64,000 nucleotides of DNA from Bacteroidota bacterium (GCA_947468275.1 CANIKO010000011.1:1-64000), one strand, 5' to 3'; positions 1,375 through 48,000 are shown, counted from the first letter of the stretch. Numbers and translations: made by a program. The notes: generated by a model not told the origin, from the sequence alone.

Positions 1375-1600
1375 GGTACAAAGTTCCATACCGTTTAATT
1401 AAAATACCGTGATTTTAATCATATCAACATGTGACTGAATAATTAATATTGTGAAAATAAAATCTTTTTGATTTTTAGAATTAATTACTCGGGTGTCATA
1501 TTTTTATAAGTTTCTAAATTCGTCAACTCTTTTGATACAATAATTTTTTAGTAAATATTGAGTTTACAAAACCAGTCACAGTAAAGTTTTATTAAATAAA

Positions 1601-1632
1601 AATAGCCCACAAGCAAATGCTAATGGGCTATT
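1601..1632 (-). terminator. Probable terminator of the cyclophilin/FKBP gene
   Basis: A perfect 9-bp inverted repeat (AATAGCCCA and TGGGCTATT) sits about 25 nt beyond the stop codon of the minus-strand isomerase gene. Read on the minus strand, it is followed by a T-rich run. This fits an intrinsic terminator. Confidence 0.6.
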
Positions 1633-1656
1633 GAAAATAGATATTTTAAGAAATAT

Positions 1657-2691
1657 TTAATTTACCGAAATCAATTCAGTATCAAAAATTAGGTTCGATT
1701 TTGGAGGAATTGCTCCTGGATATCCTGCTTCGCCATAGGCCAATTGGTATGGAATTAATAATTTAAACTTAGAACCTACTTTCATTAAAGCAATTCCTTC
1801 GTCCCAACCTTTTATTACCTGTCCAACGCCTAACTGAAATGTTAACGGACTGCCCGGTTGTGATTGATCAAAAATTTTGCCATCACTAAACATACCTTTA
1901 TAAGCCACCGAAACATTTTTACCAGGTAACGCCTTAGCTCCTGTTCCCTCCTGTTCAGCTACATAAAACAAACCGCTGTTGGTTTTTTTAGCAGTTGGAT
2001 AGTTTTTCATTACCCAATCCGCAAAATCTTTTCCTGCATTAGCTTTGGCTTCCGATTCTTTTAAAACTAGAGCTTCTTTTAATCTATCAAATTGCTCTTG
2101 ATCCGCCAGAAACTTTTCAGCTTCTTTCCCGTTTCTGATTATTTGAACGGATTGCATAATATCATTAGTTCTTGATGAGTCAACAATATTTTGACCAGAA
2201 AGTACTTTACCAAAAATAGCATGTTTACCGTCTAACCAAGGTGTGGCCACGATGGTTATAAAAAACTGACTACCATTCGTAGCTGGCCCTGAATTGGCCA
2301 TAGATAAATAACCTGGACCATCATGTTTTAAGCCTGGTCCAAATTCATCGGCAAATGAGTAACCCGGACCACCTGTTCCATTACCTAAGGGGTCGCCACC
2401 CTGCACCATAAAATCCTGTCCGTCCCCATTCACTTTACTTATTACTCTGTGAAATTTAAGTCCATCATAAAAATGTTCACCTAAAGGTTTGGCTGTGTTA
2501 GTAATCTTTCCTTCTGCCAAGCCCACAAAGTTGCACACGGTTAAAGGGGCTTCTTTGTAAAATAATTTGATTAAAATAGTACCACGGTTGGTGGTAATCT
2601 TGGCATACATGCCGTCTTCTGTTTGTGCTGATAGTTCCAATGTAAAGGCTATTAAAATAAGAGCCGCAAAAATAGGTTTTAAAATTCTCAT
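1657..2691 (-). CDS. Dual-family peptidyl-prolyl isomerase: cyclophilin plus FKBP
   Basis: This 344-residue exported protein should catalyse cis-trans isomerisation of prolyl bonds in the periplasm. Residues 1-22 are a signal peptide ending in SA-Q. Residues about 26-190 are a cyclophilin domain, with FHRVI, QGGDP, the GSQFFIT core, the tryptophan of [14 protein letters not shown] and the expected order of these blocks. A charged linker of about 50 residues follows. Residues about 245-344 are an FKBP domain ([48 protein letters not shown]). Joining the two unrelated isomerase families in one chain is known in some Bacteroidota as dual-family immunophilins. The gene stands alone, with a terminator-like hairpin downstream. 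The upstream region contains TATTTTTG, a plausible -7 element. Confidence 0.92.
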
Positions 2692-3786: not shown

Positions 3787-5084
3787 ATATTGGTTTCTAA
3801 AATTGTCGCTAATTTGTGGGTTACCGCTAAACGGCTATAAGGTTCAGGGTCAAAATTATTTAAAATCGATTTATCTTCTTGCCAATTTTTAAAGCTTTGG
3901 GTAATAAATTTGACAATACTTTCAATAGCTTCAGGCTCACAAAACTTAGACATACTTTGTTCTTTTACAAGTGTTGCCGCATCACTCAGTTCATCGCCAA
4001 TTCCTAATATTGGAACTCCAGCCGCTAGATATTCCATGGTTTTGGTGCTAACTATAAGGCGGGTTTGGCCCACCATCGGCGGACAAAGCAATAACAAATC
4101 ACTATTTTTCATTAGAGTTAAAGCTTCCTTGCGTGGCAAAAATCCTTGATGAATAAATTGAACATTTGGCAAATCTGCTTTTATTTTTTCCAAGTGAATA
4201 GGATGAACACTTCCTGCCAAATGGATTAGAATTTTTGAAGTATCAATATCCGCTTTTTTTAAAGCTTCAATAAATGAATCCAGCCGTTGGGTATCGCCCA
4301 ATAACCCAATATGAGAAATGGTAAAAAGTTCATTTTTTGCAGTTCGCTTTTGAATGCCTTCAAACATTTCCTTATCGTAGCCATTGTAAAGCACATGAAG
4401 TTTTTCAGAGCGCTTTAACTTCTTTCTCAGCAAATCTGCCATTCCCGGACCAACTGTGGTTATAATATCAGCTGAATTTAAAACCTGTGATTCCAAGGCT
4501 TCATCTTTTTGCTTTGCAAAATTGAAACGGTAGGTATTCTGTAAAAAGTAGATTTCACTCCAGGGATCGCGGAAATCAGCCAGCCATTTTATGTTAAATT
4601 TTTTAGATAAAAACAAACCTGCCAAATGGGTGGAATGTGGTGGCCCAGTAGTTATCAACCACTCAAATTTTTCAGTTTTTAACAATTCTGAAGCGGCTTT
4701 TTTAGCATAGGGAATCCAGCCTTTACGAGCATCAGGCACAAAAAAATTAGACCTAACAAATGCCATGGCTTTACTAAAAACTCCCCCGCTATTCTCCCCC
4801 AAATTGCCATAAGGAATTTCCTTATTTGCTTTCCCCGATTTTAAAAAGGAATAAAATTTTAAAGGTTCTAAAGTATTGGTATAAATGGTTTCAATATCCT
4901 TTACCATTTCCAATTGCGATTTATCTATTAATGGATATGACGCCTTATCAGGATGAACGGTGATAACAGTTGGTTTATACCCCAATCGTTTTAAATACAT
5001 AGCAAAATACATCCAACGCTGCACCCCTCCACCGCCGCTTGGTGGCCAATAATAGGTTAGTATGAGGATGCATTTTTCTTTCAT
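3783..5084 (-). CDS. GT4-like glycosyltransferase
   Basis: This 433-residue protein has GT-B glycosyltransferase features. The N-terminus carries the YYWPPSGGGGVQR motif typical of GT4 enzymes, where the glycine-rich loop contacts the donor phosphate. LADFRDPWS, ITTVGPGMADLL and VLYNGYD follow. The C-terminal domain contains ISHIGLLGDTQRLDSFIEAL and TKTMEYLAAGVPILGIGD, the usual acidic donor-binding segment. No signal peptide is present. It lies 2 nt after the E1 dehydrogenase gene and overlaps the next glycosyltransferase by 4 nt, so the three genes form one transcription unit. The link between a central-metabolism E1 and two glycosyltransferases looks like operon drift rather than a shared pathway. 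Confidence 0.82.
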   Translation of the reverse strand: MKEKCILILTYYWPPSGGGGVQRWMYFAMYLKRLGYKPTVITVHPDKASYPLIDKSQLEMVKDIETIYTNTLEPLKFYSFLKSGKANKEIPYGNLGENSGGVFSKAMAFVRSNFFVPDARKGWIPYAKKAASELLKTEKFEWLITTGPPHSTHLAGLFLSKKFNIKWLADFRDPWSEIYFLQNTYRFNFAKQKDEALESQVLNSADIITTVGPGMADLLRKKLKRSEKLHVLYNGYDKEMFEGIQKRTAKNELFTISHIGLLGDTQRLDSFIEALKKADIDTSKILIHLAGSVHPIHLEKIKADLPNVQFIHQGFLPRKEALTLMKNSDLLLLCPPMVGQTRLIVSTKTMEYLAAGVPILGIGDELSDAATLVKEQSMSKFCEPEAIESIVKFITQSFKNWQEDKSILNNFDPEPYSRLAVTHKLATILETNI

Positions 5085-5086
5085 TT

Positions 5087-7063
5087 TTAATATTCTAACA
5101 ATTCCATTATTACAGGTAATAACTGTTTTTTAGCTAAAAAATTATCTTCCAAATCTGCCGCCATAGGGATAGGGGTATCCAAGCTTCCAACCCTTCTAAC
5201 TGGAGCATCCAAAAACTCAAAACAATGTTCCGAAATCCAGGCGGCTATCTCCGCTCCTATTCCTCCGGTTAAGGTATCTTCATGCACAATCACCACCTTT
5301 CCCGTTTTTTTAGCTGCCGCTTTTACGGCTTCTTGATCCCATGGAATCAGGGTTCTTAAATCTATAATCTCAGCTGAAATATTATTCGCTTCAGTAATCT
5401 CAGTAGCCCAATGCACCGCCCAACCATAGGTTATTATGGCAATATCCTCGCCTTCCTTTACCGTTCTGGCTTTGCCAAATGGAAGTGTGTAATAATCATC
5501 ATATACTTCTTCCTTTATGCTTCGGTACAAATGTTTATGTTCAAAAAATAGGATGGGATTGGGATCATTAAACGCTTGGCAAAGTAACCCTTTAGCATCG
5601 GAAGGTGTGCTTGGGTAAACAATCTTTAAACCTGGAACTTTGGTAAACCAAGCCTCATTGCTTTGGGAATGAAACGGCCCTGCATTGGACCCGGCTCCTG
5701 TTGGCATTCGTATTACGACATCTGCTGGCTGACCCCATCGATAATGGCTTTTAGCCAAATTATTCACAATTTGATTGAACCCGCAACTTACAAAATCGGC
5801 AAACTGCATTTCAACCATCGCTTTTTTTCCTCGGATGGCCAAGCCGTAACCTGCACCAATTATGGCCGACTCGCAAATGGGTGTATTTCTTACCCTGCCT
5901 TTTCCAAATTGTGCTACAAATCCATCCGTAATTTTAAAAACACCGCCGTATTCGGCAATGTCTTGTCCCATTAAAACTAAATTATCATGGCGCTCCATGC
6001 TTTGGCGCAAGCCTTCGCTAATAGCATCTATCAGGCGCTTTTCAGTTTTGGTTTCGGTAGCTGGTTTTATTTCCTGATACTGAATTTCTTGATAAACATC
6101 GGCTAATTCTTCGTTGGTATCCGCTGTAATTTCAGGTTGGGCAAATACATCTTCCAATCCTGCTTCCATCTCCGCCTTTATTTCATGCTTTATTTCCTCA
6201 ATTTCTGAAGCATTTATTAACCCGTTTTCTAAAAGGTATTTTTCGAAGGTATTTATCGGATCTCTTTTCTCCCATTCGTCAAACAAATGTTGAGGAACAT
6301 ACTTAGTCCCGCTTGCTTCTTCGTGGCCACGCATCCTAAAAGTGAGGCATTCCAAAAGATAAGGTTTTGGGTCAGTTCGTATTTCTTCGGCTATTTCTTT
6401 TACTGCCGAAAGCACTTCCAAAATATTATTGCCATCCACTTGTTTGGTTTTTATTCCATACCCAATTCCCTTATCAATAAATTGTTTTTGCCTGAACTGC
6501 TCATTGCTAGGTGTTGAAAGCCCATAGCCATTGTTTTCTATTAAAAAAATTAATGGTAAATCCCAAACGGCTGCCACATTCATGGCTTCATGAAAATCTC
6601 CTTCACTAGCACCGCCATCGCCACTAAATACCAAAGCGCATTTTCCTGTATTGTCTAATTTTTCAGCAAGTGCAATTCCATCAGCTACACCAAGCATAGC
6701 ACCCAAATGGGAAATCATTCCCACAATATGAAACTCGGTAGTACCAAAATGAAACGAGCGATCGCGGCCTTTGGTAAATCCTGATTTTTTGCCCTGCCAT
6801 TGGGCAAATAACTTAGGAAAAGGTATTTTACGGGTGGTAAAAACACCCAAATTACGGTGCAATGGCAAAATATATTCATCTTCCATTAATGCCAAAGTAG
6901 CACCAACTGAAATGGCTTCCTGACCTATGCCACTAAACCATTTACCCACTTTTCCTTGCCTTAGCAGGATAAGCATTTTTTCTTCTATAATTCTCGGTTT
7001 TACAAGGGCTTTGTAAATTTCTTTGAGTTCAACCCTTAAATAATTGTAGCCGGAAAAATTCAT
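5087..7063 (-). CDS. Fused alpha/beta E1 component of a 2-oxo acid dehydrogenase
   Basis: At 658 residues this is a single-chain thiamine-diphosphate-dependent E1. Residues about 1-330 are the alpha part: GIGQEAISVG, then the ThDP/Mg motif GDGGASEGDFHEA...NNGYG. Residues about 345-658 are the beta part: MGQDIAEYGGVFK, CESAIIGAGYGLAIRG, then the transketolase C-terminal domain (VIVHEDTLTGGIGAEIAA). Bacteroidota commonly carry this fusion, usually annotated as branched-chain 2-oxoisovalerate or pyruvate dehydrogenase E1. E2 and E3 are not in the window, so the substrate is undecided. It is first in an operon with two glycosyltransferases. Its promoter -7 element TAATTTTG ends 4 nt before the ATG, which suggests a leaderless message. 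Confidence 0.9.
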   Translation of the reverse strand: MNFSGYNYLRVELKEIYKALVKPRIIEEKMLILLRQGKVGKWFSGIGQEAISVGATLALMEDEYILPLHRNLGVFTTRKIPFPKLFAQWQGKKSGFTKGRDRSFHFGTTEFHIVGMISHLGAMLGVADGIALAEKLDNTGKCALVFSGDGGASEGDFHEAMNVAAVWDLPLIFLIENNGYGLSTPSNEQFRQKQFIDKGIGYGIKTKQVDGNNILEVLSAVKEIAEEIRTDPKPYLLECLTFRMRGHEEASGTKYVPQHLFDEWEKRDPINTFEKYLLENGLINASEIEEIKHEIKAEMEAGLEDVFAQPEITADTNEELADVYQEIQYQEIKPATETKTEKRLIDAISEGLRQSMERHDNLVLMGQDIAEYGGVFKITDGFVAQFGKGRVRNTPICESAIIGAGYGLAIRGKKAMVEMQFADFVSCGFNQIVNNLAKSHYRWGQPADVVIRMPTGAGSNAGPFHSQSNEAWFTKVPGLKIVYPSTPSDAKGLLCQAFNDPNPILFFEHKHLYRSIKEEVYDDYYTLPFGKARTVKEGEDIAIITYGWAVHWATEITEANNISAEIIDLRTLIPWDQEAVKAAAKKTGKVVIVHEDTLTGGIGAEIAAWISEHCFEFLDAPVRRVGSLDTPIPMAADLEDNFLAKKQLLPVIMELLEY

Positions 7064-7936: not shown

Positions 7937-8332
7937 ATGCGATTAAGACACAAACGAAGATTCCATGCTGAGGTAGGAACAGGTGCCCTCAACGACATCA
8001 TGTTCTTTCTGATGCTGTTCTTCCTTATCATATCTACTTTGGCTAATCCAAGTATCATTAAGATATTTTTACCCAAAACTGCGGTGAGTGAACGAGTTAG
8101 TAAACCCCCCATTATTTTGGTAATAACTGCCGATAAACATTATTTTATTAACAATGCTGAGGTAGCTTTTGAAGATATTGAAGGGATGTTGCAACAAAAA
8201 TCTGCTGGTATGGAAGAACCTACGATTATTTTAAGGGCCGATGCGGCTTTAACCGTTCAGGACTTGGTAGACGTGATGACCATAGGTGTGAAAAACCACA
8301 TAAAAATGGTGATTGCTACGCAAAAGCAGTAG
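7937..8332 (+). CDS. exbD: ExbD/TolR family biopolymer transport protein
   Basis: This 131-residue partner of ExbB has the family architecture. A basic cytoplasmic N-terminus (MRLRHKRRFHAEVGTG) leads into one membrane helix that begins LNDIMFFLMLFFLIIS. Its aspartate, at residue 20, is the proton-carrying residue of ExbD/TolR. The periplasmic domain ends in ILRADAALTVQDLVDVM, the typical final segment. It begins 10 nt after exbB. Together the two supply proton motive force to TonB-dependent uptake. Confidence 0.88.
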   Translation: MRLRHKRRFHAEVGTGALNDIMFFLMLFFLIISTLANPSIIKIFLPKTAVSERVSKPPIILVITADKHYFINNAEVAFEDIEGMLQQKSAGMEEPTIILRADAALTVQDLVDVMTIGVKNHIKMVIATQKQ

Positions 8333-8341
8333 ATGTTCTAA

Positions 8342-8929
8342 ATGCTAGAACTTAACTTCCATCCTTTTCCAACTCTGGAAACTGAAAGACTTATTATTAG
8401 AAAAATCACTTTTGAAGATTCACAGGACATGCTTGCACTTCGAGGCAACATGGATTGCATGAAGTATATAGGCAAACCAGTTTCAACTAAGTTAGAGGAA
8501 GTCCAAGAATTAATTTCACGAATACAAGATGGATTGGAAACAAATTCGGCTATTGGCTGGGCAATATCTCTAAAAAATAACACACAATTAATTGGTACTA
8601 TTGGTTTTCATCAAATAGAAAAGCCACATTATAGGGCCGAAATTGGCTACATGCTTTTGCCTCAGTTTTGGAATAAAGGCCTTATGAGTGAAGCTATACA
8701 AAAAGTTTTGTATTTTGGGTTTAATACCATGAAACTCCACAGTATTCAAGCTAATATTGACCCCGACAATAAGGTTTCAGCCACTATTCTTAAAAAATTT
8801 AACTTTGTAAGCGAAGCCTATTTTAAAGAAAATTTCTTTTTTAATGGCAAGTTTATGAACAGTGAAATATATTCGTTGTTGAATAAAAGCCATTTACTTA
8901 ATGATAATTCTGGATATCTATTATCATGA
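8342..8929 (+). CDS. GNAT N-acetyltransferase, RimJ/RimL type
   Basis: This 195-residue protein belongs to the GNAT acetyl-CoA acyltransferase superfamily. It opens with TLETERLIIRKITFEDSQDM, the standard start of RimJ/RimL-type enzymes. GTIGFHQIEKPHYRAEIGYML follows, then the acetyl-CoA pyrophosphate loop region LPQFWNKGLMSEA. The end has the ANIDPDNKVSATILKKFNF motif typical of this group. It may acetylate a protein N-terminus or a small amine; the substrate cannot be read. The start lies 10 nt after exbD and the end overlaps the next gene by 4 nt, so it probably belongs to the exbBD transcript. Confidence 0.87.
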   Translation: MLELNFHPFPTLETERLIIRKITFEDSQDMLALRGNMDCMKYIGKPVSTKLEEVQELISRIQDGLETNSAIGWAISLKNNTQLIGTIGFHQIEKPHYRAEIGYMLLPQFWNKGLMSEAIQKVLYFGFNTMKLHSIQANIDPDNKVSATILKKFNFVSEAYFKENFFFNGKFMNSEIYSLLNKSHLLNDNSGYLLS

Positions 8930-27075: not shown

Positions 27076-27297
27076 TTGAAACTTTCCGATTTAAAAAAGG
27101 GGCAATCCGCCGAAATTATTTCCTTTGAAAAGGACGATCTAAAACTTAAGTTTTATGAGATGGGATGCCTACCAGGAGAAAAAATAACTTTGGAATTAAT
27201 TGCGCCCATGGGCGACCCCATTGCCATCAACATTGGAGGTTATTTGCTCAGTCTAAGAAAAAAAGATGCCAAAAATATTAAGGTAAAAATATATTGA
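27076..27297 (+). CDS. feoA: Ferrous iron transport protein A
   Basis: This 73-residue SH3-like protein works with FeoB in Fe2+ uptake. It has the family pattern LSDLKKGQSAEIISF, then KLKFYEMGCLPGEKITLELIAPMGDPIAI and GGYLLSLRKKDAKNIKV. The start is TTG 27076, because the frame has a stop at 27058 and no ATG before the conserved domain. The stop codon overlaps the feoB start (TTGA, 27294-27297), so the two are translationally coupled. Confidence 0.92.
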   Translation: MKLSDLKKGQSAEIISFEKDDLKLKFYEMGCLPGEKITLELIAPMGDPIAINIGGYLLSLRKKDAKNIKVKIY

Positions 27298-29363
27298 GCC
27301 ATCGCAAATCCATACAAAATGTTTATTTGGTCGGAAATCCAAATTGTGGAAAATCCACCCTTTTTAATATTGTAACGGGTTTACATCAAAAAACCAGTAA
27401 TCTTCCGGGCACCACTATCGAAATCAGGAAAAGTAAGATTTCCAATAAAAACGGTAAAACAATTCGATTGTTCGATTTGCCGGGTATATACAGCATCAAC
27501 CCTGCTAGTAAAGATGAACAAATTGCCTGCGAACCACTTTTAAACCCTGAACATGCAGAGCATCCCGACCATATAATTGTGGTAATTGATTCGTCCAATC
27601 TGAAACGAAATTTATTGCTCTTTACCCAAATTGCCGATTTAGGATTTTCCGTTTCACTGGTACTCAACATGACCGATATTGCTTCAAAAAAAGGAATTGT
27701 TATTGATATTGAACGACTTGAACGTGAGTTAGGAATTAAAGTTATTCAAACCTCAGCCAGAAGCAATCTTAACCTCGACCAACTCAAAAAACTGATTTTT
27801 GAGGATGGATTTAAGTCGCATTTTAATTGTTACGAGTCACCATCCCTTAAAGAATTTTTCACTGAATCGACTATCGATTTAACCAAATACAACGACTACC
27901 AAGCCCTGCAAATTGTTTATAAAAACAGTGATATAGTTGGGGGCAAAGCCCATCAAATAATATTTGAAGAACAAAGGGCTATGGAAGTAATGGTGCGCTA
28001 CAAGGCTATTAGTGGCTTATTGGCCCGCTGTGTTACCCAATCTAATATTCGAAAACAAGTTTCCAAAAAAATAGATAAAGTGGTGACCCACCCTGTGTTT
28101 GGCTACCTTATTTTTCTATGTATAATTTTCATTATTTTTCAGTCGGTGTTTACATTGGCGGCTTATCCGATGGATTTAATAGAACAAGCTTTTAATTGGG
28201 CGGGGCACTCTATTTCAAGCAGAATGTCTCATGGATTACTGGAGAGTTTGGTCGTCAATGGCATTTTAGCCGGTATGTCAGGAGTTATTGTGTTTATCCC
28301 TCAAATCGTTATCCTGTTTATGTTCTTGGCTATTCTAGAAGATTCAGGTTATATGTCTCGGGTTAGTTTTATCCTTGATAAAATAATGCGAAAATTTGGA
28401 ATGAACGGACGTTCAGTTTTGCCACTAATTAGCGGTGCAGCCTGTGCCATACCTGCCATCATGAGTGCACGAACCATTGAAAATAAACGCGACCGACTCA
28501 TCACAATTATGGTTACTCCATTTATCAGTTGCTCGGCTCGCTTGCCGGTTTATATTCTACTTATTAGCATTATTCCCATCCATTCCAAAATATTCGGAAT
28601 TTTTAATCATCAGGGGTTTTTATTAATGGCCATGTATCTTTTGGGAGTTATCACTTCATTGTTGGCCGGAATAGTTTTAAGCCGGTTTATTAAAAATACT
28701 GATACCACAGGTTTTTTTATGGAGTTGCCCACTTACCAACTACCACGTTTAAAAAACATCGGAATTACTTGTTTCACCAAAGCCAAAAGTTTTGTGTGGG
28801 AAGCAGGAAAAATAATATTTCTGGTGTCAATAGTATTGTGGTATCTCACTTCGTTTGGGCCTTCTGAAAAATTTAAAGAAATTGAAGAAAATGTAGCTTA
28901 TGAATTGAGGACAAACAAAATTAGTGCTGAAGATGCCAATTTAAGTTTAGCCTTGCAAAAACAGGAACATTCCTATGCAGGCTATTTTGGAAAAACTATC
29001 GAACCATTAATAAAACCACTTGGGTTTGACTGGCGGATTGGCATTTCACTCATCACTTCCTTTATAGCCCGTGAGGTTTTTGTTGGCTCAATGGCTACCA
29101 TTTATGGAGCCGGGCAGGATGATTTTGTAAATATCAGAAAAAAAATGCAGGCTGAAATTAATCCCGTTACTCACAAACCTACCTTTTCTATAGCTGTTTG
29201 TTTATCGTTATTGGTTTTTTATGCATTGGCCATGCAATGCGCCAGCACTATAGCTGTAGTATTTAAAGAAACCAAAAGTTGGAAATGGCCAACCTTACAA
29301 TTTTTGTTAATGAGCGTCACCGCTTGGGTAGCAAGTTGGGTCGTATTTAATATTTTCACTTAA
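27294..29363 (+). CDS. feoB: Ferrous iron transporter B
   Basis: This 689-residue inner-membrane Fe2+ transporter has a cytoplasmic GTPase domain. The G domain is clear: G1 GNPNCGKST, G2 region around NLPGTT, G3 DLPG, G4 NMTD and G5 TSAR. The membrane part has two Gate-like repeats, the first including MSARTIENKRDRLITIM with nearby SGAACAIPA, the second FIAREVFVGSMATIYG. It starts at TTG 27294, overlapping feoA by 4 nt. The last 11 codons and stop are nearly duplicated about 2 kb downstream (31378-31412), bracketing two unknown genes. Confidence 0.94.
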   Translation: MSHRKSIQNVYLVGNPNCGKSTLFNIVTGLHQKTSNLPGTTIEIRKSKISNKNGKTIRLFDLPGIYSINPASKDEQIACEPLLNPEHAEHPDHIIVVIDSSNLKRNLLLFTQIADLGFSVSLVLNMTDIASKKGIVIDIERLERELGIKVIQTSARSNLNLDQLKKLIFEDGFKSHFNCYESPSLKEFFTESTIDLTKYNDYQALQIVYKNSDIVGGKAHQIIFEEQRAMEVMVRYKAISGLLARCVTQSNIRKQVSKKIDKVVTHPVFGYLIFLCIIFIIFQSVFTLAAYPMDLIEQAFNWAGHSISSRMSHGLLESLVVNGILAGMSGVIVFIPQIVILFMFLAILEDSGYMSRVSFILDKIMRKFGMNGRSVLPLISGAACAIPAIMSARTIENKRDRLITIMVTPFISCSARLPVYILLISIIPIHSKIFGIFNHQGFLLMAMYLLGVITSLLAGIVLSRFIKNTDTTGFFMELPTYQLPRLKNIGITCFTKAKSFVWEAGKIIFLVSIVLWYLTSFGPSEKFKEIEENVAYELRTNKISAEDANLSLALQKQEHSYAGYFGKTIEPLIKPLGFDWRIGISLITSFIAREVFVGSMATIYGAGQDDFVNIRKKMQAEINPVTHKPTFSIAVCLSLLVFYALAMQCASTIAVVFKETKSWKWPTLQFLLMSVTAWVASWVVFNIFT

Positions 29364-29365
29364 AA
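29331..29365 (+). repeat. Direct repeat, copy 1 (3' end of feoB)
   Basis: This 35-nt segment covers the last ten codons of feoB, its stop codon and 2 nt beyond. Its first 27 nt are identical to 31378-31404; after one mismatch the next 7 nt also match (34/35). The two copies bracket a segment of about 2.0 kb. Confidence 0.85.
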
Positions 29366-29469
29366 TATTAAATTTCCTATTAAAAAAAACTGTAGCTTTT
29401 AAAAGATAAAGATTGTTAATGACAATTACACCCCTTGTTTATAAATTTACAATTTTATTATCAGCATTT

Positions 29470-29479
29470 CCCCCCCCCC
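29470..29479 (+). repeat. Homopolymer run of ten C
   Basis: Ten consecutive C residues lie in an A+T-rich intergenic stretch, about 150 nt before the next start codon. Such runs slip during replication and can switch expression. Here the run is upstream of the likely promoter rather than in a coding region. A polymerase or assembly length error at this run is also possible. Confidence 0.7.
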
Positions 29480-29630
29480 TTAAAATAAAATGACACTTAA
29501 AATTAGGAATACAGGCAAATATCTATTAAACTTTGTTTTGTTTTTAATAGAAAGGAGGTAAAATAATTGTATAGAATTGAAAGGGGAAGCTGAAGACCAT
29601 ATAGAGTAGGCAACATTAAACTATTTCAAA

Positions 29631-30065
29631 ATGAAAAAAATTATTTTGTTTTTATTCTTATCATTTACCTTTTATTTTTCAAATGCGGCTATTATTATTT
29701 GTCGCTCGTATCCCGAGAACGATTGCAATGGAAACTTTTCATCATGTAGAAATGAAGATTACAATTGGGTAACTGGGGATTGGACGATTACTATTACTTG
29801 CACTTGTTCAGCATTTTGCGGTGTATGCCCGCAGTACTCTATAGGAGGCGGGGGTGACCATGACCATGACCCTAAAGACATTACAGCTGCTGAATATTTA
29901 TTTGGTTTTGCAGATGGAGCAATTGCTCAAAGTACTTCTTCAGGCAGCGTTAGTGCTAATTATCAAGCTGATGGCGAAAATTTTGTAAGACATTATACTG
30001 CCTCATGGTTATTAAATGTGGTAACTCATACATACGAAATGAGTCTTGATAGAGATGATTACTAG
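29631..30065 (+). CDS. Small cysteine-rich secreted protein, unknown
   Basis: This 144-residue protein is not recognised. Residues 1-19 are a signal peptide (MKKIILFLFLSFTFYFSNA). Seven cysteines fall at 24, 32, 39, 57, 59, 63 and 66, enough for a disulfide-stabilised knot. A glycine/acid/histidine run follows (GGGGDHDHD, 72-80) that could bind metal. The rest is polar, with FADGAIAQSTSSGS and a C-terminus rich in Y and D. The ATG at 29631 is about 75 nt after an AGGAGGT sequence (29554-29560). It is the first of two genes in the segment bracketed by the feoB 3'-end repeat and lies 6 nt before the next gene. Confidence 0.7.
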   Translation: MKKIILFLFLSFTFYFSNAAIIICRSYPENDCNGNFSSCRNEDYNWVTGDWTITITCTCSAFCGVCPQYSIGGGGDHDHDPKDITAAEYLFGFADGAIAQSTSSGSVSANYQADGENFVRHYTASWLLNVVTHTYEMSLDRDDY

Positions 30066-30071
30066 ATTTAA

Positions 30072-31307
30072 ATGATGAGACTGACCAACTCCATTTTTAT
30101 ATTTTTGCATTTTTTTATTCCAAATAATGTATTGGGTCAGTCTTCCTATACTTTAATAAAGAAAAAACACATTCCTCCATATAATGTAACAAATACATTT
30201 TCATTTTATCAAACGATATCAAGCTTTCACAGCACCTATTTTAATGGTGTAATTATTGTAGGCTCCGATACTTTAAATTCAAAAATTCAAATTACTAAGG
30301 TTAAATATAATGATAGCTCTTCTATAGAAGATTATTACTTTGTAGCATTTCCAGAAATTTTAAAATCAAAAGCAAAAGACGGGAGTTTGCTAATAAATAA
30401 CTGCTACGAAGTGAATAAAAATACATTTCAGGTTTTATTCGAAAACTGCATCCTAGTGACTTTTATTTTTAAAAAGAACAAATTCAAAATAGTTGACATA
30501 ATTGATTTAGAGAAAAAATTATCTTCTGGATTTTCTTACTTATATAAGTGTGGTGATTATTACACTGGTTTTAATAAAATAATACTAGGAAAATGTTTAG
30601 TAAACAAGATTGATACTCCTGAATTATTTCTCTTTGACAAGAATTTCAAAATAATTAATAGTACTAAAATACCTCAATTTGAAACTTCCTTTTTAACTTT
30701 TGGCGGTACAAAATATTTAGATTTTTGCAAGGATAAATTACTTATTTGTTCTCCAACGAATTTTTCATTTGGTGTGTTTGACTTTAATTCGTTAACCTAT
30801 AATTCATACGATTTAAAAAATATAAAGAATTTTAACCTTCAAAAAATCGATTCGACATTAGATCATTCAATCAAAAGTATATTTTCCGGAGCTTTATATG
30901 GAGATAGACTTGGAGCATATTTAAAATTAAGAAATGATTCATTTAATTTTATCAAAAAGTGTTATTTCAGCGGTAAAGATGAAATTGAATTATTGATATC
31001 AATTAGTAAAAAGGGGCACCATTCAATGCAGTTGTCAAAACTAAAAATTAATCCCAAATTAACTTATAAACTAATTGATACCAATATTTACTCTATAAAT
31101 AGGAATAAAATAATTACCAAGTTTGATTATCCATTTGACCCATACCAGATGAGTTTTGAGATTAATAATTCTTACATTATTGCTTATGGTTATGACTTTT
31201 GGAATGAAAATCTTATAGGTAAAAAAATCGTAGACTTTAACGATAAAAAGTATTTTTCAGATGACCGTAATAGGAAATTTAAATACTATATCCTAAGACG
31301 AAACTAA
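30072..31307 (+). CDS. Secreted protein of unknown function in the feoB-rpoD insert
   Basis: This 411-residue protein is not recognised. Residues 1-22 form a signal peptide ending NNVLG-Q. The mature chain alternates short beta-strand-like stretches with polar turns (IIVGSDTLNSKIQI, ELFLFDKNFKII, FGVFDFNSLTYNSYDL), which could be a propeller or similar all-beta fold, but no repeat was defined. There are six cysteines. It begins 6 nt after the cysteine-rich protein gene, so the two are likely co-expressed. Hand counts give 13 and 17 G/C in two 60-nt lines (30481 and 30841) against 21 in an rpoD line (31801), suggesting a lower G+C than its neighbour. Confidence 0.7.
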   Translation: MMRLTNSIFIFLHFFIPNNVLGQSSYTLIKKKHIPPYNVTNTFSFYQTISSFHSTYFNGVIIVGSDTLNSKIQITKVKYNDSSSIEDYYFVAFPEILKSKAKDGSLLINNCYEVNKNTFQVLFENCILVTFIFKKNKFKIVDIIDLEKKLSSGFSYLYKCGDYYTGFNKIILGKCLVNKIDTPELFLFDKNFKIINSTKIPQFETSFLTFGGTKYLDFCKDKLLICSPTNFSFGVFDFNSLTYNSYDLKNIKNFNLQKIDSTLDHSIKSIFSGALYGDRLGAYLKLRNDSFNFIKKCYFSGKDEIELLISISKKGHHSMQLSKLKINPKLTYKLIDTNIYSINRNKIITKFDYPFDPYQMSFEINNSYIIAYGYDFWNENLIGKKIVDFNDKKYFSDDRNRKFKYYILRRN

Positions 31308-31335
31308 ATATTAGTTAGCCAAAATAGACAAATGC

Positions 31336-31410
31336 CCTTGATAGAATTTATTTATATTGAGTATTACAGCCTGATTTGCAAGTTGGGTCGTATTTAATAT
31401 TTTCTCTTAA
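31336..31410 (+). pseudogene. Decayed copy of the feoB 3' end
   Basis: Read in the feoB frame this segment gives P-stop-stop-NLFILSITA-stop-FASWVVFNIFS-stop. The genuine feoB end is PTLQFLLMSVTAWVASWVVFNIFT. The last ten codons differ only by T to S, while the upstream part is diverged and has three in-frame stops. The near-identical part (31378-31412) is copy 2 of the direct repeat. It is either the junction of an inserted segment or the relic of a second feoB copy. Confidence 0.7.
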
Positions 31411-31441
31411 AAAAACATTCAATTTTTTTGCAGAATTGTTA

Positions 31442-31449
31442 TATTTTTG
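31442..31449 (+). promoter_or_regulatory. Candidate -7 element of rpoD (TATTTTTG)
   Basis: An exact TAnnTTTG lies 68 nt before the rpoD start codon. No TTTG was found at the right spacing upstream. It lies 29 nt beyond the second feoB-end repeat, so that segment ends just short of the rpoD promoter. Confidence 0.45.
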
Positions 31450-31517
31450 CAAGTTCTATCGAAAAACGAATAATAATTCTAATTTCAACGTCTAAATAAA
31501 GAGAATTTAAGGAAAAA

Positions 31518-32381
31518 ATGAGGCAGCTAAAAATCAGTAAACAGTTTACCAATCGCGAAAACAAGTCGCTAGACAAATACCTGAATGAAATTTCAAAAGT
31601 ACCAATGATTGATGCACAGGAGGAGGTGGAACTAGCCCGTCGAATCCGTGAAGGTGACCAAACTGCTTTAGAAAAATTAGTGAATGCCAACCTTCGTTTC
31701 GTTGTTTCTGTTTCCAAACAGTATCAAAATCAAGGATTAACCCTTGGCGATTTAATAAATGAAGGCAACTTAGGTTTGATAAAAGCCGCCAAGCGTTTTG
31801 ATGAAACCCGTGGTTTTAAATTTATCTCTTATGCTGTGTGGTGGATTCGTCAATCTATTTTACAAGCTTTGGCCGATCAATCACGTATTGTACGTTTGCC
31901 TTTAAATAAAGTAGGTTCCATTGGTCGTATTTCGGCTATGGCTGCCAAGCTTGAGCAAATACACGAGCGTGAACCAACGGCTGAAGAAATAGCTGTAGCT
32001 CTGGATGTTCCTTTAATAGAAGTTGAAAATGCCTTGCGTTCAGCCGGTCGTCACCTATCTATTGATGCACCACTTACCGAAGGGGAAGACAATACACTTT
32101 TAGGAGTTTTGGACAGCAATGACGAGCCTCGTCCGGATTCATCATTAATCAGCGAATCATTACAAAAAGAAATTAGCCGTGTGATAAGCACGCTTAGCGA
32201 TAAGGAACGGGATGTATTGAAATATTACTACGGCCTTGATGGCGGACCGGCTCATACCCTGGAAGACATCAGCGAAAAAGTAGGACTAACCCGCGAACGG
32301 GTTCGCCAGATAAAAGAAAAAGCATTGCGAAGACTTCGCAAATCTTCAAAAAGTAAGATTTTGAAATCGTACTTAGGATAA
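31518..32381 (+). CDS. rpoD: Primary RNA polymerase sigma factor (sigma-70/RpoD)
   Basis: This 287-residue principal sigma factor, like those of other Bacteroidota, lacks region 1.1. Region 1.2 is [15 protein letters not shown]. Regions 2.1-2.4 run through [57 protein letters not shown]. Region 3 follows LPLNKVGSI, and region 4 holds the helix-turn-helix [28 protein letters not shown]. It directs core polymerase to the TTTG/TAnnTTTG promoters seen in this window. It is a single gene between the feoB-associated insert and the ric-rrf2 operon. Confidence 0.95.
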
Positions 32382-42435: not shown

Positions 42436-45400
42436 ATGAAAAATATATACTCATTATTAAAAACCATCGCAACTTGTTTACTTTTTATTATAATATCAGT
42501 AAGCAACAGTAAAGCGCAGGATAGCAAAGGAAATAACTTCTGGCTTATGTTTCCTACTAATTATAACGGAAGTGGAGCTCTAAAGCTATTCATCACATCG
42601 CCCGTAAATACATCTGGAACTATTTCAGGGGCTACGTTTTCAAACATTACTTTTACAGTAACAGCGAACACAGTAACTACTGTTACATTACCTACATCAT
42701 TAAATGTGCATACTAACAATACGGTAGATAACACAGGATTTCATGTTGTTTCAAATGATGATATTACCGTTTATGGCTTAAATTATATTCAATACACCAC
42801 CGATGCTTATCTGGCATTTCCAAAAGATGCCTTAGGTACCGATTATTTGGTTATGAGTTATGGTGGAGGGGTTTCTTCAATATTAGGGGTAGTTGCTACT
42901 GAAAACTCAACATCAGTTACTATCACTTTACCTGGTCAAAGTCCTACAAGCAGAACTATGAATCAGGGACAATCATTACAATTATCTGCAAGTGATGTTA
43001 CAGGAACAGTTATTACTTCAGATAAACCTATTGGTGTATTTGGTGCAAATGCATGTACAAATATTCCTTCAACTGCATCTGCATGTGATCATATTTGCGA
43101 AATGATTCCTCCTACTTCTACTTATGGTAAAAAGTTTGCCACAGTTCCATTAAAAAGTAGAACAGGTGGAGATACTTGGCGTTTTATGGCTTCACAAAAT
43201 AGCACCACTATAACAATAAATGGGACTGCTCAAACTGCTATCAATAAAGGACAGTTTATAGAAAAAGTTCTTACAACAAGATCTGTAATAGAGTCGGATA
43301 AACCAATTCTTGTTGCTCAATATTCCAATGGATTAAATTTTGATAATACGGTAGGTGACCCATTTATGATGTTAATTCCACCAGTTGAACAATTTTTACC
43401 TTCGTATACCTTATCAACAGTTTCAGGGTTTACCAATCATTACGTAAATATTGTTGCTCCAACATCTGTCGTTGGTTCTGTTACAAAAGATGGAACAGCA
43501 ATTTCTGCGGGTTTATTTAGTGCTATTGGGTCTTCAGGTTATTCTGGAGCTCAGGTTGATGTAAGTGATGGTTCTCACACATTTGCTTCATCCCTTCCTT
43601 TCGGTGCATTTGCTTATGGTTTTACAGGATATGATTCTTATGGGTATGCAGGTGGACAATCATTCTCACCAGTTGCTACTGTAGCAAATTTAGATCTTTC
43701 ACCTGCCACAGGTTCAGCCCATTTTAATACAAATCAATGTTGGACCGCAACAGTTACCGACCAATATAATGCTCCTGTGGCAGATGTCAAAGTAGATTTT
43801 GATATTACCGGTGTAAATAGTGCCCAATCAGGATTTGCTAATACCAATTCAAGTGGCGTAGCCACCTTTTGTTATGCCGGTGCTAATGGTGGTAATGATG
43901 CCATAAATGCACATGTTGGATCAATTGCTGATAATGCTACATTTACTTGGATTTCATGCGTACCACCAACTATAACTTGTCCTTCAAATATTTCAGTTGA
44001 TAATTCCACTGGTGAATGTGGTGCTAATGTTACATTTGAAGCAACTGCAACCGGAACTTCACCAACTATTGCCTACTCTCCTGCCTCTGGAAGTTTCTTT
44101 GCAGTGGGCACTACAACTGTTACTGCAACTGCTAACAATTCTTGCGGAACGGATGTATGTACTTTTGATGTAACCGTTAAAGATACTGAAAAACCTAATG
44201 CACTTTGTAAAAATAAAACAATCCAACTTGACAATACTGAGACTGCATCCATTACAGCAAATGATTTGGATAATGGTTCAAATGATGCTTGTGGTATTAA
44301 ATCTCTTGGTATTAGTAAATCATCTTTTGACTGTTCAAATTTTGGTGCTAATTATTTAACCTTAACGGTGACAGATAATAATAACAATGTATCTACTTGC
44401 CAAGACACCGTTACGATATTAAGAGACTTGGTTTTTGATTATTCAATAACAAGTCCGGTTGAAGAGTGTTCAAAGGTTACCATTAAATGGCATGGAGGTT
44501 GCTCAGGCTGGAATGTTAATATTACTTTGATTGATAGTGCATCTTTTACCGTTCAAACTTATGTGGCAAGTAATATTGCAAATTCAGGATCATATACTTG
44601 GACTTTACCTTCTTGCATACCAGCGGGTAGATATTATTTCTATATTGAAGAAGTATCAAGAACTACAACCTGGACTTATGGTACTTCTGTTTTTACCATA
44701 AACAATACCGCCCCAACAATTACAACTCAAGCTTCTAATTCAACAGTGGAATGTGATGGTCATGGAAATACATCTGATTTAAACACTTGGCTAGCTAATA
44801 ACGGTGGAGCTTCTGCCACTGATGCTTGCGGTGGACTAACTTGGTCAAATAATTTCTCAGCCTTAAGCGATGAATGCGGCGCTACAGGTTCAGCAACCGT
44901 AACCTTTACTGCAAAAGATGCCTGTGGAAATCCTTCTACAACAACTGCTACCTTCAAAATTGAAGATACTACTGCTCCATCAATTACAACAAAAGCTTCT
45001 AACTCAACCGTAGAATGTGATGGTCAAGGAAATACTTCAGCTTTAAATACTTGGCTTGTTAATCATGGTGGAGCCTCTGCTTCTGATGCTTGTAGTGGAG
45101 TTACATGGTCTAACGACTTTTCTGCTTTGAGTGATGATTGCGGTGCTACAGGTAGTGCTAAAGTGAAATTTACTGCAACTGATGATTGCGGTAATAAATC
45201 AACAACAACCGCCATCTTCAAAATTGAAGATACAACGGCTCCAACAATTACAACATCAACTGGTTCGCTAGATGCTAATTTAGAATGTTCTGATGCTTCA
45301 GGAATTGCTTCTGCTTTGGCTGAAGCTCCTGCCGCAACTGATAATTGCACGTCTAATCCAACTCGTAGTTTGATTACTGATAATACCTATAATACTATAA

Positions 45401-48000
45401 CTACCGCAGGTTTTACAGGTTCATATGCACCATCCAATTGGAGTCTAATTCAAACTTCGGGCGGTTCTGGATCTGTAAATACATCCTCAGCTCCTAACTC
45501 TATACAATTATATGGAAGTGATGGCGGAGGTGGAGGAACTAAAGATACTCGTTATCAAATTTCTGTACCAACTGCTGGAACAATTACTTTTAGTTGGTCC
45601 TATGTAACTTCTGATAGGGATGGTCCTGCCTTTGACCCATTTGGTTATTATTTAAATGGAACTTTCTTCCAGTTAACTTCAAATTCTAGCAGTGCTAGAA
45701 CCCAATCAGGAACCAAATCAATTTCTGTTTCGGCAAGTGATAAGTTTGCGTTTATGATAAGGTCAACTGATAATGTTTTAGGGGCATCTACAACGGTGGC
45801 TTCCAATTTTACGGCGGTAACTCAATTATGTGCCAACGAATATATCCGTGTAAGAACATGGAACTTTAAAGATGATTGTAATAATACCTCTGCATTTTTT
45901 ACACAAACTATACATGTAAAAGACAATACTGCCCCTGTTATTAACACCCAAGCTTCCAACTCAACCTTGGAATGTGATGGTCAAGGTAATACGTCAGCTC
46001 TAAATACTTGGTTAGCTAATCATGGCGGAGCTTCTGCTTCTGATGCTTGCGGTGGAGTTAAATGGTCTCATAACTTTACAAGTTTAAGTGATGATTGCGG
46101 TGCCACTGGTAGTGCTGTGGTAACGTTTACAGCTACCGATGATTGCGGCAATAAATCTACAACAACCGCTACCTTCAAAATTGAAGATACAACGGCTCCA
46201 ACAATTTCTACTCAAGCTTCTAACTCAACCGTGGAATGTGATGGTTCTGGAAACACTTCAGCTTTAAACGCATGGTTAGCTTCTAACGGCGGTGCATCTG
46301 CTTCTGATGCTTGCGGTGGAGTAACTTGGTCTCAGAATTTTACAAGCTTAAGTGATGATTGCGGTGCCACAGGTAGTGCTACTGTAATATATACTGCTAC
46401 CGATGATTGTGGTAATAAATCTACAACTACTGCTACATTTACTATTGAAGATAAAACTGCTCCGATTGCTATTTGCAAAGCGAAAACTATTACATTAGTA
46501 AATGGAACTGCCTCTATTGTTGCTTCGGATATTAATAACGGCAGCTACGATGTATGCAGCGGCGGAGTAACACTGAGTGCTTCCAAAACTTCATTTAATT
46601 GTACAAATATTGGAGCTAATACTGTAACTCTTACCGTAACCGATGCTTGTGGAAACAAAAGCACTTGTGATGCCACTGTAACAGTTGTAGGTACTATTCC
46701 TTCGGTATCTATCAGCCAAGGTGTTCAACCTGTATTTTGCCAAGGTGGAGCCGTAGTTTTAAGTTCTACTTCTAACGAAACTGTAACTTACGCTTGGAGC
46801 AATAATGCCACAACGGCTAATACTAATGTGTATGCCAGCGGAACCTATTCTTTAACTGTTACCAACAGTTACGGATGTACTAAGTCTGCTTCTACTACTG
46901 TGGCTTATAGTCAAACGGATTTATTGTCCTCTTATACCATTTTAACAACTAGTGAAGCTGAAATTGAAAAAGAGTCTATTGTTAAATCAGGAGGGGTTGG
47001 TTCTAAAGGAACCAAGGAAGGTGAAGTAGAAGTGAGTGAAAATTCATTGATTACCGCCTCAGGTACATTTGCTAAAGCCAAGGAAGTAGAAATTAAATCA
47101 GGAAGTTCTGTTACCTATGCTTTTGAAGGAACTCCGGTATCTGTTAGTTTACCAACATTTGCTTACAATCCATATTGCGATGATAAAAAATGTGATCATA
47201 AACGTTGCGATCATAAAGAGTGTAAAAAATCAGGATGTTCTCACAGTGCTTGTAATCACGGAACTAATGATGTAAAAGCTAAAAAAGATGCCACTGTAGT
47301 AATTACAGATTCCATTTTCCGCAAAATTCAAATTGAAAGTGGAGCTACAGTTACATTCACAAGCAAAAATATTTATGCTGAAACCATTGAAACTGAAAAA
47401 AATGTTACCATTAAATTTGGAGGATGTACCCGTATTTTCCTTTGCAAGGATTTTAAAATAAATGAAAATAACGTCTTTAATTCTGCCAATAACAGTGTAA
47501 TTATTTATGCCGAGAAAAAAGCCGAAATTCAAAAGGGCACCAAACTAATTGCCAATATCTACACCCTTGACGAAATATCAACAAAAGGCGATAAGAGTAA
47601 CCGCAATAGTTTGACAGGTATGTATATAGCTCAAAAATTAGATGCTCATTATACCGACTTTAGTTGGAACACCGTATGTGGATCATGTGGTTCATTGGGT
47701 AAGAAAACTTTAGCTGAAGACCTTACAGGATTAAGAGATGCATCGGTGGATTACGTATCGGTTTATCCTAACCCAACCAGCAGTATTGCTACTGTTAGTG
47801 TAAATGCCAACCATGACGGAATGCTTAAAATTAAGGTTATCAGCATTACTGGTGAACTATTATACGCCACCGAAAAAGCAGACTTTACAGGTCTTGCCGA
47901 AATCCCTATTGATATGACTAATTATTCAGTAGGTATGTATTTTATCAAAGTGGAATACGGCAGTAATATTAAATTATTTAAAATTAATCGATTGAATTAA
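42436..48000 (+). CDS. Giant T9SS-secreted adhesin: IgGFc-binding-like, Ig-like, HYR repeats, Cys/His ladder
   Basis: This 1854-residue surface protein has a signal peptide at residues 1-27. An IgGFc-binding-protein N-terminal-like region (GNNFWLMFPTNYNG onward) extends to about 430. An invasin-like Ig domain (TVTDQYNAPVADVKVDFDI) follows, then an HYR domain (ITCPSNISVDNSTGECGANV). Four 87-residue units start near nt 44716, 44977, 45940 and 46201, each with ASNST-x-ECDG-x-GNTS and ATDDCGNKSTTTA. Between units 2 and 3 another HYR-type unit is interrupted by a beta-rich insert of about 120 residues. Residues 1581-1608 form a six-fold C-x4 ladder with four histidines. The end is a T9SS type A domain (YVSVYPNPTSSIATV). 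It probably mediates adhesion or matrix building; the ligand is unknown. Confidence 0.88.
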   Translation: MKNIYSLLKTIATCLLFIIISVSNSKAQDSKGNNFWLMFPTNYNGSGALKLFITSPVNTSGTISGATFSNITFTVTANTVTTVTLPTSLNVHTNNTVDNTGFHVVSNDDITVYGLNYIQYTTDAYLAFPKDALGTDYLVMSYGGGVSSILGVVATENSTSVTITLPGQSPTSRTMNQGQSLQLSASDVTGTVITSDKPIGVFGANACTNIPSTASACDHICEMIPPTSTYGKKFATVPLKSRTGGDTWRFMASQNSTTITINGTAQTAINKGQFIEKVLTTRSVIESDKPILVAQYSNGLNFDNTVGDPFMMLIPPVEQFLPSYTLSTVSGFTNHYVNIVAPTSVVGSVTKDGTAISAGLFSAIGSSGYSGAQVDVSDGSHTFASSLPFGAFAYGFTGYDSYGYAGGQSFSPVATVANLDLSPATGSAHFNTNQCWTATVTDQYNAPVADVKVDFDITGVNSAQSGFANTNSSGVATFCYAGANGGNDAINAHVGSIADNATFTWISCVPPTITCPSNISVDNSTGECGANVTFEATATGTSPTIAYSPASGSFFAVGTTTVTATANNSCGTDVCTFDVTVKDTEKPNALCKNKTIQLDNTETASITANDLDNGSNDACGIKSLGISKSSFDCSNFGANYLTLTVTDNNNNVSTCQDTVTILRDLVFDYSITSPVEECSKVTIKWHGGCSGWNVNITLIDSASFTVQTYVASNIANSGSYTWTLPSCIPAGRYYFYIEEVSRTTTWTYGTSVFTINNTAPTITTQASNSTVECDGHGNTSDLNTWLANNGGASATDACGGLTWSNNFSALSDECGATGSATVTFTAKDACGNPSTTTATFKIEDTTAPSITTKASNSTVECDGQGNTSALNTWLVNHGGASASDACSGVTWSNDFSALSDDCGATGSAKVKFTATDDCGNKSTTTAIFKIEDTTAPTITTSTGSLDANLECSDASGIASALAEAPAATDNCTSNPTRSLITDNTYNTITTAGFTGSYAPSNWSLIQTSGGSGSVNTSSAPNSIQLYGSDGGGGGTKDTRYQISVPTAGTITFSWSYVTSDRDGPAFDPFGYYLNGTFFQLTSNSSSARTQSGTKSISVSASDKFAFMIRSTDNVLGASTTVASNFTAVTQLCANEYIRVRTWNFKDDCNNTSAFFTQTIHVKDNTAPVINTQASNSTLECDGQGNTSALNTWLANHGGASASDACGGVKWSHNFTSLSDDCGATGSAVVTFTATDDCGNKSTTTATFKIEDTTAPTISTQASNSTVECDGSGNTSALNAWLASNGGASASDACGGVTWSQNFTSLSDDCGATGSATVIYTATDDCGNKSTTTATFTIEDKTAPIAICKAKTITLVNGTASIVASDINNGSYDVCSGGVTLSASKTSFNCTNIGANTVTLTVTDACGNKSTCDATVTVVGTIPSVSISQGVQPVFCQGGAVVLSSTSNETVTYAWSNNATTANTNVYASGTYSLTVTNSYGCTKSASTTVAYSQTDLLSSYTILTTSEAEIEKESIVKSGGVGSKGTKEGEVEVSENSLITASGTFAKAKEVEIKSGSSVTYAFEGTPVSVSLPTFAYNPYCDDKKCDHKRCDHKECKKSGCSHSACNHGTNDVKAKKDATVVITDSIFRKIQIESGATVTFTSKNIYAETIETEKNVTIKFGGCTRIFLCKDFKINENNVFNSANNSVIIYAEKKAEIQKGTKLIANIYTLDEISTKGDKSNRNSLTGMYIAQKLDAHYTDFSWNTVCGSCGSLGKKTLAEDLTGLRDASVDYVSVYPNPTSSIATVSVNANHDGMLKIKVISITGELLYATEKADFTGLAEIPIDMTNYSVGMYFIKVEYGSNIKLFKINRLN

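What the first reader, a model, noticed from the sequence alone, without database searches (positions are those of the whole stretch)
29331..31412. Segment of about 2 kb bracketed by a near-perfect repeat of the feoB 3' end
The last ten codons and stop of feoB (29331-29365) are repeated at 31378-31412: 27 nt identical, then 7 more after one mismatch (34/35). Reading copy 2 in the feoB frame gives FASWVVFNIFS-stop against VASWVVFNIFT-stop, with weaker homology upstream (PxxNLFILSITA against PTLQFLLMSVTA) broken by stops. The interval carries two unknown secreted-protein genes. Two models fit. In one, a cassette integrated at the feoB 3' end and restored the gene, as islands do at gene ends. In the other, a second feoB copy decayed and was replaced. 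There is no integrase inside, so any recombinase must act in trans or be lost.
Basis: partly seen in the sequence, partly recalled or inferred. Interest (0 to 1): 0.62.

Follow-up and report, generated by a model that had tools for sequence, protein, structure and literature searches.

The report
Gene cassette bracketed by displaced gene end
A foreign two-gene cassette sits between an iron-transport gene (feoB) and rpoD with a stray, worn piece of another species' feoB end beside it, and the same arrangement recurs at six other genes of this bacterium, which suggests that small cassettes without an integrase enter genomes together with a borrowed gene end.

Summary
The repeat is real: 27/27, then 34/35 nt, at 29331-29365 and 31378-31412. 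Its homology extends 59 nt upstream (33/59; p about 8e-6). All six same-genus relatives have the empty site, with feoB directly followed by rpoD, and five more distant genomes keep that order. So about 2.05 kb (24-28% G+C in P2, flanks about 35-40%) is a derived insertion carrying two secreted-protein genes of no known family behind a DUF805b-like RNA leader. There is no recombinase inside.

The finding is not unique. In 816 kb of the same genome, eight such events at seven genes (feoB, mfd twice, mutS2, an S24/HTH gene, aroQ, an OstA-like gene, an HsdR_N gene) bracket small cassettes, often toxin-antitoxin genes, with a partial copy of the adjacent gene's end. Gene/displaced differences concentrate at third codon positions (45/68, p=3e-8), as between orthologues. 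The two copies therefore come from different genomes and are not a self-made target duplication. At OstA the gene's first 350-450 nt are imported from a G004-like donor, and the native end lies displaced beyond the cassette.

Closest known: insertion with long target duplication and homology-facilitated illegitimate recombination. I call it a new variant of a known kind. The physical mechanism at feoB is inferred.

The parts
27294..29363 (+). feoB, intact; native-like over its whole length including the 3' end
   Evidence: Pfam FeoB_N, Gate, FeoB_C; sliding identity to relatives shows no foreign tract at the 3' end
29272..29365 (+). gene-attached copy of the feoB 3' end (reference copy of the repeat)
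   Evidence: 94-nt repeat family D1
29331..29357 (+). 27-nt identical core, left copy (34/35 to 29365)
29366..31318 (+). inserted foreign segment: G+C about 35% over the leader and P1, 24-28% over P2, flanks about 35-40%; exact ends uncertain by tens of nt
   Evidence: absent from six same-genus relatives; composition
29551..29560 (+). AAAGGAGGTA, full match to the 16S anti-Shine-Dalgarno; also upstream of the leaders in G001 and G004
29580..29612 (+). DUF805b-like RNA (Rfam RF02914) in the 5' leader, 18 nt before the P1 start codon
   Evidence: 32.6 bits, E=8e-7, gathering score 35.6; consensus pattern found genus-wide and Bacteroidota-wide
29631..30065 (+). P1, 144 aa, Cys-rich protein with apparent signal peptide; no family
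   Evidence: homologues paired with a P2-like gene in G001, G003, G004
30072..31307 (+). P2, 411 aa, protein with apparent signal peptide, predicted strand-rich; no family
   Evidence: AlphaFold model mean pLDDT 45.6, not usable for the fold
31319..31377 (+). displaced, decayed feoB 3' fragment of another allele (three in-frame stops)
   Evidence: 33/59 to feoB, p about 8e-6; 11 of 26 private variants match other species' feoB; third-position bias p=0.009
31378..31404 (+). 27-nt identical core, right copy (34/35 to 31412)
31405..31517 (+). native rpoD leader, continuous with the right copy as in the empty sites
   Evidence: alignment with G005 and G004 empty sites
31518..32381 (+). rpoD (primary sigma factor), right flank; adjacent to feoB across the order
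   Evidence: Pfam Sigma70 r1.2-r4

Best explanation
A laterally acquired two-gene cassette entered the feoB-rpoD interval by a recombination event anchored in homology at the feoB end, without a recombinase of its own. The incoming DNA carried the cassette joined to a feoB 3'-end fragment from another lineage. Recombination between that fragment and the resident gene (crossover most simply inside the 27-nt identical core) left feoB intact on one side of the cassette and a worn, non-native feoB fragment on the other. This is one case of a recurrent process in this genome: cassettes arrive with a homeologous gene end as their address, at housekeeping genes whose function is kept because one complete end is always present. 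Shown: insertion, empty sites, foreign origin of one copy, recurrence, absence of a recombinase, and an imported gene end at OstA. Inferred: the molecular route (uptake of linear donor DNA with one homologous and one illegitimate join, or a circle carrying cassette plus gene end) and the feoB crossover point.
For: Empty single-copy sites in 6 of 6 relatives; ancestral feoB-rpoD order. Low G+C of the segment. Displaced feoB fragment: p about 8e-6, variants shared with other species' feoB, third-position bias p=0.009. The same anatomy at six other genes in 816 kb, with the second copy absent from relatives at the S24/HTH gene (G004 has one 125-nt copy where this genome has two) and mutS2. Third-position concentration 45/68, p=3e-8, against p=6e-4 for in-place decay; amino acids kept 34/35 (mfd) and 45/46 (mutS2). 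OstA: first 350-450 nt G004-like, rest G005-like, displaced copy native. mfd has two displaced ends around two cassettes, as expected for successive events. Independent assemblies show related structures: displaced aroQ end in G003, 318-nt leader repeat around the P1-P2 pair in G001.
Against: At feoB the intact gene end looks native, so the imported-end signature is visible only in the displaced copy, which is decayed. The OstA import tract is longer than the displaced copy, which fits a linear one-sided event; feoB with its exact core fits a single crossover or site-specific event better, so more than one route may be at work. No such loci were found in 400 kb of G005 or 400 kb of G027, so the process is not general, or the rate differs, for reasons unknown. 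No reads were available to exclude assembly error at each locus.
Confidence: 0.62

Rival explanations
1. Site-specific integration: the cassette is an integrase-less, cis-mobilizable element whose attP mimics the feoB 3' end (27-nt core), mobilised by a tyrosine recombinase in trans; the two copies are attL and attR.
For: Exact 27-nt core with abrupt divergence outside it; insertion at a gene 3' end with the gene preserved. Six tyrosine recombinases in the genome.
Against: The other loci have unrelated end sequences and repeat lengths of 69-206 nt, 84-94% identical, so one recombinase cannot serve them; neither the 27-mer nor the segment has another copy in the genome. Homology continues 59 nt upstream of the core, which an att core does not need.
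Confidence: 0.2
2. Insertion with long target duplication in the literal sense: an unknown transposition copies about 90 bp of the recipient's own feoB end, and the spare copy then decays.
For: Same gross anatomy as described for restriction-modification units (PMC1643837; PMC3874152).
Against: Differences are third-position biased like orthologues; the OstA displaced copy is closer to G005 than the gene's own end is; decay that spares 27 nt exactly but ruins 26 of 59 is not expected.
Confidence: 0.1
3. Assembly artefact: allelic contigs of co-occurring strains were joined in tandem.
For: Draft genome of 32 contigs; copies are diverged homologues, as strain variants would be; none found in G005 and G027 samples.
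Against: The feoB displaced copy has three in-frame stops and is no strain allele; mfd shows a nested series; other assemblies show a displaced aroQ end (G003) and long leader repeats (G001); estimated contamination is 0.02%.
Confidence: 0.06
4. A second feoB copy or feoB-rpoD tandem duplication decayed and was replaced by the cassette.
For: The right copy is a decayed feoB end.
Against: No relative has a second feoB at the site; the retained part is only about 94 nt with an exact 27-nt core.
Confidence: 0.02

Closest known systems
Insertion with long target duplication (Nobusato et al. 2000, Gene 259:99-108, cited in PMC1643837, PMC4978471, PMC3031569, PMC3874152; original not read)
   Same: Accessory unit without a recombinase, absent in close relatives, bracketed by a long and variable direct repeat of the order of 100 bp made of target sequence.
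   Different: Described for restriction-modification units, mainly in Helicobacter. Here the cargo is secreted proteins and toxin-antitoxin genes in a Bacteroidota genome, and the repeat copies are homeologues from different genomes, not copies of the recipient target.
Homology-facilitated illegitimate recombination and sequential displacement at T6SS loci (Kirchberger et al. 2017, PMC5361080)
   Same: One conserved end anchors the incoming module; the resident end is displaced outward; repeated events build arrays (compare mfd with two displaced ends).
   Different: Here the anchor is an ordinary housekeeping gene's 3' or 5' end, the displaced part is a non-functional gene fragment, and the module has no functional link to the anchor.
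e14 prophage in icd (gene-restoring integration; from my own knowledge)
   Same: The element carries its own version of the gene end and leaves the resident end displaced.
   Different: e14 has an integrase and one target; these cassettes have none and use at least seven targets.
Cis-mobilizable elements (CIME; reviewed in PMC5704250, located by search but not read)
   Same: Recombinase-less DNA bracketed by att-like repeats at a gene 3' end.
   Different: No related integrative element with the same core was found in this genome; the other loci do not share a core.
DUF805b RNA (Rfam RF02914)
   Same: Leader upstream of P1 matches the model over its full length, E=8e-7.
   Different: Score 32.6 is below the gathering score 35.6; structure and function untested.

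Membership tests
Insertion with long target duplication | Insertion polymorphism with a single-copy empty site in close relatives | tested here: met
   6 of 6 same-genus genomes empty
Insertion with long target duplication | Long, variable-length direct repeat of target sequence at both sides | tested here: met
   94 nt at feoB; 69-206 nt at six other genes
Insertion with long target duplication | Second copy is a duplicate of the recipient's own target | tested here: not met
   Third-position bias and OstA comparison show homeologous copies
Insertion with long target duplication | Cargo is a restriction-modification system | tested here: not met
   P1 and P2 have no Pfam, NCBIfam or PADLOC family
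Homology-facilitated illegitimate recombination | One homologous join, with an import tract running into the resident gene | tested here: inconclusive
   Seen at OstA; no import tract seen in feoB
Homology-facilitated illegitimate recombination | Other join illegitimate (no or minimal homology) | tested here: inconclusive
   Junctions listed, no common motif evident by eye; donor sequence unknown
Integrase island / cis-mobilizable element | Defined core at both ends | tested here: met
   27-nt exact core
Integrase island / cis-mobilizable element | Recombinase inside, or a related element using the same core | tested here: not met
   None inside; no other copy of core or segment in the genome. 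Elements in other genomes not searched.
Gene-restoring integration (e14/icd type) | Gene end attached to the intact gene is element-borne | tested here: inconclusive
   Met at OstA, not visible at feoB
DUF805b RNA | Covariance score above the curated gathering score | tested here: not met
   32.6 vs 35.6 bits
Integron gene cassette | attC site recognised by an integron integrase | not tested
   No attC search was run; none noticed in 29366-31412 by eye

The most novel reading that the evidence does not exclude
Small accessory cassettes move between related Bacteroidota species as integrase-free, homology-addressed units: each carries the end of a housekeeping gene as its address, recombines into that gene in a new host, leaves the gene intact and pushes the old end and older cassettes outward, so that one lineage accumulates stacked cassettes at housekeeping gene ends. 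This would also explain 'insertion with long target duplication'.
Probability: 0.3. Interest if true: 0.78.

Novelty: new variant of a known kind. Interest (0 to 1): 0.58.

Why it matters
How units without a recombinase insert with long 'target duplications' has been described since 2000 as suggesting a novel mechanism. The codon-position test and the OstA import tract indicate that the second copy is not made from the target but arrives with the insert, which turns a puzzling transposition into homology-guided uptake. It makes the question testable in any genome with close relatives and gives a signature (a displaced, synonymous-diverged gene end) for finding such cassettes, many of them toxin-antitoxin units, beside core genes.

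Tried and rejected
(1) Function of P1/P2 by family search: nothing in Pfam, NCBIfam, PHROGs or PADLOC, no viral relative of P2; AlphaFold of P2 with two sequences was too poor to use, so no fold search was run. (2) The conserved leader motif looked like a new element or an att site; it proved to be DUF805b RNA, widespread in Bacteroidota, and it lies inside the cassette, not at the junctions. (3) Direct repeats around the homologous P1-P2 pairs in G003 and G004: none convincing, so the feoB repeat is not a constant property of this gene pair. (4) Displaced feoB ends downstream of feoB in 23 more distant genomes: none. (5) Two further repeat pairs of the automatic screen in this genome (C1:68046/74525 and C10:115708/116031) were set aside as a dispersed repeat in a doubtful ORF and a short-spaced repeat without cargo. 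(6) For mfd, mutS2 and the S24/HTH gene, which copy is native could not be decided from 70-140 nt.

Full report
Observation. The 27-nt identity and the 34/35 match are as stated. In the feoB frame the right copy reads KIDKCP**NLFILSITA*FASWVVFNIFS*, with three in-frame stops. At sites where it differs from this genome's feoB it matches another species' feoB in 11 of 26 cases, against 0.235 expected. It is a decayed fragment of a different feoB allele.

Empty site. The window lies in a 3.3-Mb Bacteroidota genome (G000). All six same-genus genomes (G001-G006) have feoB followed directly by the rpoD leader, with one copy of the end and no cassette. The feoB-rpoD order is also kept in at least five more distant genomes. 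In the alignment, the left copy continues into the cassette and the right copy into the native rpoD leader. The interval is therefore a derived insertion of about 2.05 kb. Its G+C is about 35% over the leader and P1 and falls to 24-28% over P2, against roughly 35-40% in the flanking genes.

Cargo. P1 (144 aa) and P2 (411 aa) have apparent signal peptides and match no family. Homologous P1-P2 pairs sit at unrelated loci in G001 (two), G003 and G004 (two). For two of these, the groES site (G004) and the dnaX site (G003), the corresponding site in G000 and G005 is without the pair. The G003 and G004 pairs are 89% identical at different loci, with homology confined almost exactly to the two genes. 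Upstream of P1 lies a leader matching DUF805b RNA (RF02914; 32.6 bits, E=8e-7, just under the curated threshold). Its consensus occurs widely in Bacteroidota, mostly about 50 nt before genes for secreted proteins, lipoproteins and other small proteins. It is part of the cargo, not of the junctions.

Recurrence. A self-comparison of 816 kb of G000 (window included) found the same anatomy at seven genes, eight events: mfd 3' end (two displaced copies, around a PIN-domain gene and around an Ice_binding protein with a T9SS tail), mutS2 3' end (small gene pair resembling toxin-antitoxin, no Pfam hit), an S24/HTH gene 3' end (lipoprotein), aroQ 5' end (HicA with an UPF0150 partner), an OstA-like gene 5' end (lipoprotein and a 213-aa protein), an HsdR_N gene 3' end (nucleotidyltransferase-HepT pair), and feoB. 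Identities come from Pfam. None contains a recombinase. Repeats other than feoB are 69-206 nt, 84-94% identical. The S24/HTH site is single-copy in G004, where the two flanks overlap by 125 nt. In samples of 400 kb each, G005 and G027 gave none.

The two copies come from different genomes. If the target were duplicated on insertion and the spare copy decayed, differences should fall on all codon positions. Over six loci other than feoB they fall 15/8/45 on positions 1/2/3 (p=3e-8), the profile of true orthologues in the same segments (6/3/32), and away from a simple model of in-place decay (46% at position 3 expected by my own estimate; p=6e-4). Proteins are nearly unchanged (mfd 34/35, mutS2 45/46). 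At OstA the import can be seen: this genome's gene is closest to G004 for its first 350-450 nt and to G005 thereafter (about 0.91 against 0.79), while the displaced 177-nt copy is native (0.915 to G005, against 0.87 for the gene's own end). A donor gene end thus came in together with a cassette, and the native end was left on its far side. At feoB the gene is native-like to its end and the foreign fragment is the displaced one, so the crossover there lay in or near the 27-nt core.

Mechanism. Best supported: homology-anchored entry of cassette plus gene-end DNA, keeping one complete gene end. Two routes remain open. A linear fragment with one homologous and one illegitimate join fits OstA, where the import tract is longer than the displaced copy. 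A circle carrying cassette and gene end, integrating by one crossover, fits feoB. A site-specific recombinase fits feoB alone but not the set, because the ends share no sequence.

Artefact. Joined strain variants could mimic the pattern. Against this: stops in the feoB fragment, the nested mfd series, a displaced aroQ end in the independent G003 assembly, and long leader repeats around the P1-P2 pair in G001. Only reads would settle it.

Known. [quoted passage not shown] a review gives target duplications of the order of 100 bp (PMC3874152). Sequential displacement by homology-facilitated illegitimate recombination was proposed for Vibrio T6SS immunity arrays (PMC5361080). The present case has the gross anatomy of the first and probably a route like the second, at housekeeping genes and with other cargo. 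I file it as a new variant of a known kind.

Noticed in passing
window 44702-46463: Diverged repeats of about 260 nt (units at 44706, 44970, 45946, 46210) and a 541-nt pair 77.6% identical; apparently a repeat-containing gene.
   Followed up: no
window 29471-29480: Run of about ten C in the cassette's upstream region, unusual in DNA of this composition; possible slippage site.
   Followed up: no
window 29551-29560; L047, L050, L054: AAAGGAGGTA, a complete anti-Shine-Dalgarno match, stands upstream of several DUF805b leaders, although Bacteroidota rarely use such sites (own knowledge); in G004 a short open frame runs from just after it into the RNA motif.
   Followed up: partly
L068 (G005:C19) 623-2371, minus strand: A 421-aa tyrosine recombinase ends shortly before a DUF805b leader and a small lipoprotein gene, near a contig end; may be an integron-like platform.
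   Followed up: no
L056 / L066 (G003:C168) contig end: A long attC-like palindrome (GGGGTTTGCG...CGCAAACCCC...GTTATGC) directly before a DUF805b leader.
   Followed up: no
L069-L185 (genome contigs): The 30-nt pattern GGGNNNGCYGANNNCCNNNNNNAGTARGCA occurs in at least 117 stretches, nearly all Bacteroidota, before secreted proteins, lipoproteins, possible peptide precursors and small domains; several clear cases score below Rfam's threshold. It also occurs in many IMG/VR contigs.
   Followed up: partly
L047 (G001:C5) 5948-6345 and 8005-8391: Leader repeat of 318 nt, 98% identical, precedes both the P1-P2 pair and the next, unrelated T9SS-type gene; the same accretion pattern with a leader as anchor.
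   Followed up: partly
L348 (G000:C10) 2830-2912 and 4912-4994: A second repeat, 83 nt at 98%, precedes two unrelated secreted-protein genes inside the aroQ-OstA cassette block.
   Followed up: no
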